DNA of 64,000 bases from Gammaproteobacteria bacterium (GTDB lineage Bacteria; Pseudomonadota; Gammaproteobacteria; Pseudomonadales; IMCC2047), in assembly GCA_021773395.1 (NCBI GenBank), contig JAJFKB010000003.1, positions 236,071 to 300,070 on the forward strand, given 5' to 3'. Under the pieces are notes generated by a model, which was not told the origin of the DNA, made no database searches, and worked only from the letters and a program-made list of their open reading frames with translations. The position numbers were made by a program, and so were the translations under genes. Below are positions 50,482-51,887 of the stretch, piece by piece. Within the stretch, counting starts at the first letter, position 1. Each line of letters starts with the position of its first letter.

Positions 50482-51147
50482 TTGCAAACGAAACAGATAG
50501 AACTTCCAAACTTGCAGGAAATGATAGATCTTTATCGAACCTGCATGCGATTAACGAGGGATGGTGAAATCCTGTTGCAAGCAGCAAGCCGTCTCAAACG
50601 TTTGGCTTTGAATTCAGAAATATTCGCTGTCCAGGCTGGAGTCAAAGGTCGCGTATTTCAAAGCCTTTCGAAGGAAACCAACCAATTATCCCGTGATATT
50701 GCCGAGGTAGTCCGGCAGTTATTAGCGAACGTAGATACAATTTCAGTTCAGGCCATTGAGAGTGCTGAACAGACTCGGCTGTGTGAAAAATATCAGCAGG
50801 CAATAATAATCGGGGTGACTTCTCCTACGCGGGAGCAGGTCGCTGCACGTCATCAGTTTGTTGGCGAGGGCATTATGCGGGCGCTGTCGGAAGTATATAG
50901 CTCGCTGGTTAATTCGCACCGCATGATGAATGACATGGAGCACTTACATCACCGGCTACCTGTAATCGCAACGTTAATGAAAATCGAAGCTAACCGAGAT
51001 AATGATTTTCGGGATACATTTACCACCAATGCAGCCGATTTATTACTGCTCAATGAGGAGTTAAAAAAGGTGATTGCCAGCGTCCATAATACCACCGAGA
51101 ATGCGCTGCAGTATATCAACCAGATGGGTGTGGGAGTTTATCGATGA
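50482..51147 (+). CDS. Helical-hairpin signalling protein paired with the di-iron sensor
   Basis: The 221-residue soluble protein is a long all-alpha chain with a central stretch of small, heptad-patterned residues (ASRLKRLALNSEIFAVQAGVKGRVFQSLSKETNQLSRDIAEVVRQLL). This resembles a shortened chemoreceptor hairpin (NxEIFAxQAGxxGRVFxSLxKE). It lacks a transmembrane segment and a ligand domain. The start is TTG at 50482 with AGGGG upstream. Its stop overlaps the start of the metallo-beta-lactamase-fold gene (ATGA), so the two are co-translated. In known chemotaxis systems a di-iron protein of this fold partners a receptor hairpin, so this may be its partner. Confidence 0.6.
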   Translation: MQTKQIELPNLQEMIDLYRTCMRLTRDGEILLQAASRLKRLALNSEIFAVQAGVKGRVFQSLSKETNQLSRDIAEVVRQLLANVDTISVQAIESAEQTRLCEKYQQAIIIGVTSPTREQVAARHQFVGEGIMRALSEVYSSLVNSHRMMNDMEHLHHRLPVIATLMKIEANRDNDFRDTFTTNAADLLLLNEELKKVIASVHNTTENALQYINQMGVGVYR

Positions 51148-51887
51148 TTAAAAAGCCGATTTTTGAAAAAGATGGCCATACCTGGTTTGTATTTGGGAGA
51201 GAGCAAAAAAAATTTAATACAGTCATTGATACTAATGAGTATCTCATTATCAGCAATGAGCAGTATATACTGCTAGATCCTGGTGGTACTGAGATATTTC
51301 CGAATGTAGTTGCAGCCGTTTCAGAAGTGGTTGATGTAGGTAAAATAGGTACTTTTTTCTGCTCTCATCAGGATCCGGATATCATGTCCTCGCTACCCTT
51401 GTGGATGGGCCTGTGCCCAAAGGCAAAGATATATCTTCCCGCTATCTGGTCAGACTTTATTGCTCATTTTGGACATGAGTATGTGGATAACTTTGTTAAA
51501 GTGCCGGATAAAGGGGTAAGCATTCCAATAGGCAAAGATAAGGCCGATTTACAACTGATCCCGGCACACTATTGTCACAGTAGTGGCAACTTTTCACTCT
51601 ACGATCCCAACGCAAAGATTCTTTTCTCTGGGGATATCGGTGCTGCAATTATGCCCATTGACGCCAATGAACTTGAGGTTACAGATTTCCAGCAGCACAT
51701 TCAGTATATGGATCACTTCCATCGCAGATGGATGCCATCAGAAAGAGCGCTGCGAAATTGGGTCGCCAGAGTGCGGGAATTGGATGTTGACATGATGTGT
51801 CCGCAGCATGGCTCGATTTTTTCGGGGGAAAATGTCGGGTTGTTTCTCGATTGGCTGGAACAATTGGAAGTAGGATCCGCACACTAG
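51144..51887 (+). CDS. Di-iron metallo-beta-lactamase-fold protein (ODP/flavodiiron-core-like)
   Basis: The 247-residue protein is a stand-alone MBL fold without a flavodoxin domain. The metal positions match the flavodiiron spacing: His75-x-Asp77-x-Asp79, His145 (or His142), Asp164 and His222. The usual Glu of H-x-E-x-D is Asp here. This form is the oxygen-binding di-iron protein (ODP) type, which in Treponema senses iron and oxygen for chemotaxis. It overlaps the hairpin gene by 4 bp. Sensing of O2, NO or iron is likely; catalytic NO reduction is less likely because the flavin domain is missing. Confidence 0.8.
   Translation: MIKKPIFEKDGHTWFVFGREQKKFNTVIDTNEYLIISNEQYILLDPGGTEIFPNVVAAVSEVVDVGKIGTFFCSHQDPDIMSSLPLWMGLCPKAKIYLPAIWSDFIAHFGHEYVDNFVKVPDKGVSIPIGKDKADLQLIPAHYCHSSGNFSLYDPNAKILFSGDIGAAIMPIDANELEVTDFQQHIQYMDHFHRRWMPSERALRNWVARVRELDVDMMCPQHGSIFSGENVGLFLDWLEQLEVGSAH

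What the first reader, a model, noticed from the sequence alone, without database searches (positions are those of the whole stretch)
50482..51887. Overlapping chemoreceptor-hairpin-like and di-iron MBL-fold genes: a candidate gas/iron sensor
The MBL protein keeps six metal positions in the flavodiiron spacing (H75, D77, D79, H145, D164, H222) but has an Asp in place of the usual Glu and no flavin domain. The first gene encodes only a receptor-like hairpin, with no membrane or ligand part. The ATGA overlap implies a 1:1 complex. Together with the SufT-like and NnrS-like genes upstream, it looks like a soluble sensor for O2, NO or Fe2+.
Basis: partly seen in the sequence, partly recalled or inferred. 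Interest (0 to 1): 0.75.

Follow-up and report, generated by a model that had tools for sequence, protein, structure and literature searches.

The report
Single-chain chemoreceptor tip with di-iron oxygen sensor
Two overlapping genes encode a known type of iron-based oxygen-binding protein and a small partner that looks like both halves of a chemotaxis-receptor tip fused into one chain; this suggests that some bacteria steer by sensing oxygen or iron inside the cell, and it offers a natural model for how receptor pairs divide their work.

Summary
The pair is real and conserved. Gene B (51144-51887) is a member of the ODP (oxygen-binding di-iron protein) family: Pfam PF19583, 250 bits. Its Asp is the family norm, not an oddity. 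Gene A (50482-51147) is not one hairpin but two: each half matches the chemoreceptor (MCP) tip in register, and AlphaFold supports a four-helix bundle, i.e. a single-chain receptor-dimer tip. The halves kept different tip residues: Asn (Tsr N381) in half 1 in 33 of 33, Glu (Tsr E385) in half 2 in 31 of 33, Glu in half 1 in 0 of 33. In 391 genomes of the order, all 33 A genes found sit directly upstream of an ODP, while 52 other ODPs have none. A-linked ODPs form one clade (100/98). In five distant loci the operon continues with a canonical mini-MCP, CheA, CheW and a CheV-like gene. Best reading: a cytoplasmic O2/Fe(II) sensor feeding a chemosensory array, as ODP with TDE2496 does in Treponema denticola, but with a degenerate, asymmetric single-chain receptor. 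A-ODP binding, iron or O2 binding by this copy, and CheA control are inferred, not shown. SufT and the 'NnrS' gene are not conserved neighbours. New variant of a known kind.

The parts
50482..51147 (+). gene A: single-chain, tandem-hairpin MCP-tip protein, 221 aa, TTG start (first in-frame ATG is at 50521)
   Evidence: ORF; profile match to MCPs; AlphaFold pLDDT 88.6, pTM 0.80
50605..50658 (+). tip 1 (residues 42-59, ALNSEIFAVQAGVKGRVF), aligned without gaps to the MCP tip; N44 is invariant in 33 members
50965..51021 (+). tip 2 (residues 162-180), second MCP-like tip; E169-A170 nearly invariant
51144..51147 (+). ATGA: start of gene B overlaps stop of gene A
51144..51887 (+). gene B: ODP-family di-iron MBL-fold protein, 247 aa
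   Evidence: PF19583 E 1.8e-74, 250.3 bits; 6qrq E 8.7e-69 and 6qnm E 2.6e-64
51366..51380 (+). metal motif H75-x-D77-x-D79 of gene B
   Evidence: 124 of 124 homologues
51576..51578 (+). metal-position H145 of gene B
   Evidence: 124 of 124
51633..51635 (+). metal-position D164 of gene B
   Evidence: 123 of 124, one Glu
51807..51809 (+). metal-position H222 of gene B
   Evidence: 123 of 124, one gap

Best explanation
Gene B is an ODP: an MBL-fold protein with a di-iron site that binds O2 and Fe(II) (shown by others for T. denticola, inferred here). Gene A is its dedicated receptor subunit: two MCP-tip hairpins fused in one chain, folding as an antiparallel four-helix bundle with both tips at one end, so one A molecule mimics a receptor dimer tip. 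ODP docks on A (inferred from linkage), its iron-oxygen state changes the bundle (inferred), and A, sitting in or beside a chemosensory array, changes CheA activity (inferred). In the window's genome the array would be one encoded elsewhere (CheA-type kinases on C23 and C13, five CheW matches, three MCP). In Oligoflexales-type loci a dedicated mini-MCP, CheA, CheW and CheV-like gene follow in the same operon. The two hairpins have divided the tip residues between them (Asn and mostly Arg in half 1, Glu in half 2), which would let each half take one of the two positions that receptor subunits occupy in a core complex.
Against: Neither half of A keeps the full contact set; in the window's own copy half 1 has Phe and Gln where MCPs have Glu and Arg. 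A scores far below Pfam's MCPsignal cut-off (14.3 against 34.6 bits). Where CheA is in the operon, a separate canonical mini-MCP is there too, so A may not be the CheA-contacting subunit. Of 44 A+ODP loci only 5 hold a CheA within the stretch read (median 4.0 kb downstream). Some are followed by other outputs: GGDEF (L087), a receiver protein (L043), a histidine kinase (L048, L049), an ammonium-transporter/histidine-kinase hybrid (L099). In an Agrobacterium receptor the Glu and Arg changes were not named among those that fail, so these residues may matter less than Asn. A complex of A with ODP was not modelled (no multimer tool).
Confidence: 0.6

Rival explanations
1. A is an ODP-holding adaptor or decoy that works through a separate canonical MCP (the mini-MCP in the five operons, membrane MCPs elsewhere) and never contacts CheA or CheW itself.
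For: Tip residues split and partly lost; a canonical mini-MCP is encoded beside A in all 5 loci that carry CheA.
Against: Asn in tip 1 (33 of 33) and Glu in tip 2 (31 of 33) are among the most conserved positions of A, which is odd if the tip has no array contact; the other 39 of 44 loci show no mini-MCP gene of this kind beside A (L095 and L102 have a longer MCP-like ORF on the other strand).
Confidence: 0.2
2. A+ODP is a signalling module outside chemotaxis, plugged into c-di-GMP cyclases or histidine kinases.
For: GGDEF protein overlapping ODP in L087, histidine kinase after ODP in L048 and L049, receiver protein in L043, transporter-kinase hybrid in L099; a GGDEF gene (motif only) runs convergently into ODP in L078, L080 and L103 (two genomes); the A-less ODP L167 is next to a GGDEF protein.
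Against: A is homologous to receptor tips; five operons carry CheA, CheW and CheV-like genes; a CheV-like gene lies about 2.4 kb after ODP in L093 and L097 (Pfam on L093); CheW association by genus p 0.0002.
Confidence: 0.15
3. Gene B is an enzyme (O2 or NO reductase or a hydrolase) and A is a structural or regulatory subunit, not a receptor.
For: Weak similarity to flavodiiron NO/O2 reductases (PRK11921 33 bits).
Against: No flavodoxin or rubredoxin domain, Asp in place of Glu as in the solved ODPs, and a partner that descends from receptor tips. The same genome has a separate protein that reads as a full flavodiiron-rubredoxin enzyme (L002, by eye).
Confidence: 0.04
4. The MCP likeness of A is only generic coiled-coil similarity.
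For: Window A alone scores weakly (PF00015 E 0.038); many unrelated coiled-coil families appear once or twice at E 0.0007-0.01 among members.
Against: In-register match at the tip, 12 of 33 members hit MCPsignal at E <= 0.01 (best 1.1e-6), profile to solved MCPs E 7.3e-10, and all 20 phase-preserving shuffles fail.
Confidence: 0.03

Closest known systems
T. denticola ODP (TDE2498) with sensorless MCP TDE2496; T. maritima ODP (PDB 6qrq/6qwo, 6qnm/6r9n; species of each entry recalled)
   Same: Same ODP family and all six metal positions; genetically coupled to a soluble MCP relative without membrane or sensor part.
   Different: TDE2496 is described as an MCP homologue that modulates CheA; A is a degenerate tandem of two tips. 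TDE2496's sequence was not obtained here. The two solved ODPs fall outside the A-linked clade.
Natural soluble single-chain MCP signalling domains (Rhodospirillum centenum and others) and engineered Tsr~Tsr
   Same: Two signalling hairpins in one chain (PMC4692393, abstract, passages and section 26).
   Different: A has degenerate, asymmetric tips and is tied to ODP; the paper says the function of the natural ones is unknown. Their sequences and lengths were not compared here.
T. maritima soluble receptor, PDB 3g67/3g6b (recalled as TM0014/Tm14)
   Same: Best-scoring solved relative of the A profile.
   Different: One canonical hairpin per chain that forms a homodimer (recalled).
Flavodiiron proteins
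   Same: MBL fold and ligand spacing.
   Different: Glu in the HxExD motif, flavodoxin domain, catalytic turnover (recalled).

Membership tests
ODP (PF19583) | match above the family's curated cut-off over the whole domain | tested here: met
   250.3 bits against 27.2, profile 1-194 of 194
ODP (PF19583) | HxDxD...H...D...H metal positions as in the solved ODPs | tested here: met
   all six identical to 6qrq and 6qnm
ODP (PF19583) | di-iron site with stable O2/peroxo adduct | not testable with these tools
   needs protein and spectra
Flavodiiron protein | Glu in HxExD and a C-terminal flavodoxin domain | tested here: not met
   Asp at position 77; no flavodoxin domain
MCP signalling domain (PF00015) | score above the curated cut-off | tested here: not met
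   14.3 bits against 34.6 for the window protein; related at profile level
MCP signalling domain (PF00015) | Asn, Glu and Arg of the trimer/CheW contact together in one hairpin | tested here: not met
   Asn in half 1 33/33, Glu in half 1 0/33, Glu in half 2 31/33, Asn in half 2 3/33
Single-chain MCP tip | two MCP-homologous hairpins in one chain | tested here: met
   both halves match MCP and each other in register; four helices in the L050 model, four-helix alignment of the window model
Single-chain MCP tip | control of CheA | not testable with these tools
   needs kinase assay
ODP-coupled receptor system | receptor-like gene linked to ODP in relatives | tested here: met
   33 of 33 A genes found in the order

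The most novel reading that the evidence does not exclude
[quoted passage not shown] ODP binding would then report O2 or iron through a receptor whose inner and outer subunits are genetically distinct.
Probability: 0.35. Interest if true: 0.75.

Novelty: new variant of a known kind. Interest (0 to 1): 0.55.

Why it matters
The ODP-receptor partnership has been studied in T. denticola. Here a large, exclusive A+ODP lineage is traced through the window's order and into several other phyla, with a receptor partner that the standard domain model misses in the window. Its split tips are a natural experiment on an open question in chemoreceptor biology: what each subunit of a receptor dimer does. 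Single-chain Tsr was engineered as a possible tool for manipulating the two subunit positions separately. It also widens the list of likely cytoplasmic O2/iron sensors, and the five six-gene operons look like dedicated ODP chemosensory units.

Tried and rejected
Rejected: Asp as an anomaly (family norm); SufT and NnrS as part of the system (no match to either near any A+ODP relative held; the flank upstream is short in some loci, so SufT could be missed there); 1:1 stoichiometry from the overlap (spacing varies); flavodiiron enzyme. VIA hits of A to BAR domains, pore-forming proteins and CdvB were judged generic helical-bundle matches; the rows shown hold no MCP signalling tip (a periplasmic PilJ region is listed), and a two-chain tip cannot show as such in a chain-based list. 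Led nowhere: one literature search for tip residues (no paper), CheO of Campylobacter (no known sensory domain). Presence or absence of CheW alone (32 of 32 against 52 of 58) is weak; only the count of 4 or more separates the sets, a threshold chosen after seeing the data, so it is exploratory. Controls for CheW were 58 of the 59 handles between G001 and G080 without any ODP match (G054 left out by oversight). The MCP comparison set (30) was collected with a pattern that demands Asn, Glu and Arg, so its 30 of 30 for those residues is by construction. Circularity: the profile was built from the genes it finds, and 26 of the 33 order genes were in that. Independent-homology test: a profile trained only on the 33 order members finds the upstream ORF in 8 of 11 far loci and misses it in L046, L048 and L049, whose inclusion rests on position, length and the joint profile; the reverse training finds 29 of 33. 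In L047, L050, L051 and L053 that profile scores the mini-MCP above A, and in L046 it finds only the mini-MCP. Alignment A2 left out 11 of the 44 loci. The search scored at most 7 candidates per genome, and the scan uses exact peptide patterns and finds close relatives only. A2's Pfam scan also gave single hits to unrelated coiled-coil families.

Full report
WHAT IS THERE. Gene A (50482-51147, 221 aa, TTG start) and gene B (51144-51887, 247 aa) overlap by ATGA. Gene B matches Pfam ODP (PF19583) with 250.3 bits over the whole profile. Its closest solved relatives are two ODPs: 6qrq (E 8.7e-69) and 6qnm (E 2.6e-64) (recalled as T. denticola and T. maritima). The six metal positions H75, D77, D79, H145, D164 and H222 are the same in both. 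Over 124 homologues, H75, D77, D79 and H145 are kept in 124, D164 in 123 and H222 in 123. No flavodoxin domain was found. Gene A alone has only weak hits (MCPsignal 14.3 bits against a cut-off of 34.6; four solved MCP chains at E 0.004-0.03).

LINKAGE. An ODP search of 391 genomes of the window's order found 85 places in 84 genomes. They fall in two groups with a gap between 226 and 190 bits. I read the surroundings of all 85 places (loci). All 33 places of the upper group have an A gene directly upstream. None of the 52 places of the lower group does (51; one, L187). The reverse search with a profile of A (alignment A2, 33 sequences, 26 of them from these genomes) over the same 391 genomes gave 33 hits of 148-241 bits, at those same 33 places; the next hit scored 64 bits and lies in a 549-residue open frame (at most 7 candidates scored per genome). 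A scan of a collection of 84,980 species' genomes with gene B, which reaches close relatives only, gave 11 loci, from two Legionella, an Alteromonadaceae genome, Oligoflexales, Bacteriovoracaceae, Spirobacillus, two SAR324, a deltaproteobacterium, Sulfidibacter and Sericytochromatia. All 11 have an A-like ORF upstream, one of them cut by the contig end. Of these 11, 8 are found by a profile trained without them and 3 are not. A search of 398 genomes of the phylum found ODP matches in 102; of these only the 29 new best loci (L159-L187) were read: six hold an intact A+ODP pair (L159-L164) and one has a stop inside A (L166). A tree of 124 ODPs puts the 51 A-linked ones in one clade (100/98); the two solved ODPs lie just outside, together with the A-less L167 and L177. 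L167's neighbour is a GGDEF protein; L177's neighbour has the motif and resembles it by eye. Spacing between A and ODP runs from -11 to +102 bases over 44 loci.

SPLIT TIPS. At the position of Tsr N381, half 1 has Asn in 33 of 33 and half 2 in 3 of 33. At that of E385, half 1 has Glu in 0 of 33 and half 2 in 31 of 33. At that of R388, half 1 has Arg in 24 of 33 and half 2 in 8 of 33. The window's own copy reads N44, F48, Q51 in half 1 and L165, E169, R172 in half 2, so its Arg lies with Glu. The mapping to Tsr numbers is by alignment and recall. In a published model E385 and R388 form an ionic lock between partnering dimers in receptor trimers (PMC8144572, one figure-legend passage). In an Agrobacterium receptor, Phe, Asn, Glu, Arg and Val were chosen by alignment to Tsr/Tar as trimer-contact residues; the Asn and Val variants did not restore the wild-type response, and the Glu and Arg variants are not named as failing (PMC8466855, section 17). 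In ordinary receptors one subunit of each dimer sits at the trimer axis and the other faces CheA and CheW (PMC4692393, abstract). A plausible reading is that fusion let the halves specialise.

CONTEXT. In five loci (Spirobacillus L046, Bacteriovoracaceae L047, Oligoflexales L050, Legionella L051 and L053) the operon reads A, ODP, a 120-153 aa canonical MCP hairpin, CheA, CheW, and a CheV-like gene (CheW plus receiver domain). Pfam confirms the mini-MCP in all five (82-92 bits), Hpt and HATPase in all five CheAs (CheW domain in four, not in L046), the CheV-like gene in all five, and CheW in the two of five tested (L046, L050) (gene order). A profile of these CheAs finds no CheA in the other 39 of 44 loci, within flanks of median 4.0 kb downstream. 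A CheV-like gene lies about 2.4 kb after ODP in L093 and L097 (Pfam on L093). Elsewhere the next gene is a GGDEF protein (L087), a receiver protein (L043), a NIT-domain histidine kinase (L048, L049) or an ammonium-transporter/histidine-kinase hybrid (L099), and a gene with a GGDEF motif runs convergently into ODP in L078/L103 and L080. The remaining neighbours were looked at by eye only. The window's genome has five CheW matches, three MCPs and two CheA-type kinases, none of them beside the pair. All 32 genomes with A+ODP have at least four CheW matches against 30 of 58 order genomes without ODP; by genus 20 of 20 against 25 of 44 (three shared genera dropped from the controls), Fisher p 0.0002. 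The threshold of four was chosen after seeing the numbers and the searches used different E cut-offs, so this is supportive, not decisive. No match to the SufT gene, the 49323 gene or the 52136 gene lies in the flanks of any A+ODP relative held.

HOW IT LIKELY WORKS. By precedent, ODP binds iron and O2 and signals through a soluble receptor to CheA: PMC7666581 (passages and section 8) and PMC6978683 (passages, which says ODP interacts directly with its cognate receptors). [quoted passage not shown] The primary paper (Muok et al. 2019) is not held; its content is recalled or taken from those papers. Here the receptor is a single-chain tip. Shown: family, linkage, duplication, residue pattern, operon types. 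Inferred: A-ODP binding, metal and gas, CheA control, split roles. Engineered single-chain Tsr supports chemotaxis when the linker is long enough, so a fused dimer can work.

COMPARISON. ODP with a sensorless soluble receptor is known. Soluble single-chain MCP domains are known in R. [quoted passage not shown] Ten literature searches (the lists were capped) listed no paper whose title or shown abstract describes a degenerate single-chain receptor tip tied to ODP; the library lacks most subscription journals, including the primary ODP paper. I therefore call it a new variant of a known kind.

Noticed in passing
L165, L168-L176, L178-L181, L183, L185, L186 (unnamed lineage f78 of the same phylum): A different ODP clade (17 rows, 100/97) sits beside or between small Roadblock/LC7-like proteins (by eye; Pfam run on L168 only: Robl_LC7 38.8 bits downstream, LAMTOR5 20.7 bits, below cut-off, upstream), a possible ODP-to-roadblock sensor pairing.
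   Followed up: partly
L106 (order genome G048): A lone ODP without gene A has a Roadblock/LC7 protein (58.5 bits) 6 bases upstream and joins the roadblock clade in the tree.
   Followed up: partly
L087 (same place as L059): A-ODP followed with a 4-base overlap by a 7TMR-DISM/GGDEF protein; the A-less ODP L167 is also next to a GGDEF protein.
   Followed up: partly
L046, L047, L050, L051, L053: Six-gene operon A, ODP, mini-MCP, CheA, CheW, CheV-like, with no CheR, CheB or flagellar gene recognised by eye in the stretches held.
   Followed up: partly
L166: Gene A carries an in-frame stop between its two hairpin halves, so each half is a separate ORF; sequencing error, decay or a natural split cannot be told apart.
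   Followed up: no
   Followed up: no
G000:C17 (L002): The same genome encodes a protein that reads by eye as a full flavodiiron-rubredoxin enzyme (HxExD motif).
   Followed up: no
G000:C13:224-234 kb, just before the window: A Pil-Chp-like chemosensory cluster (name recalled): CheW, MCP and a 1995-residue open frame with CheA-type domains.
   Followed up: no
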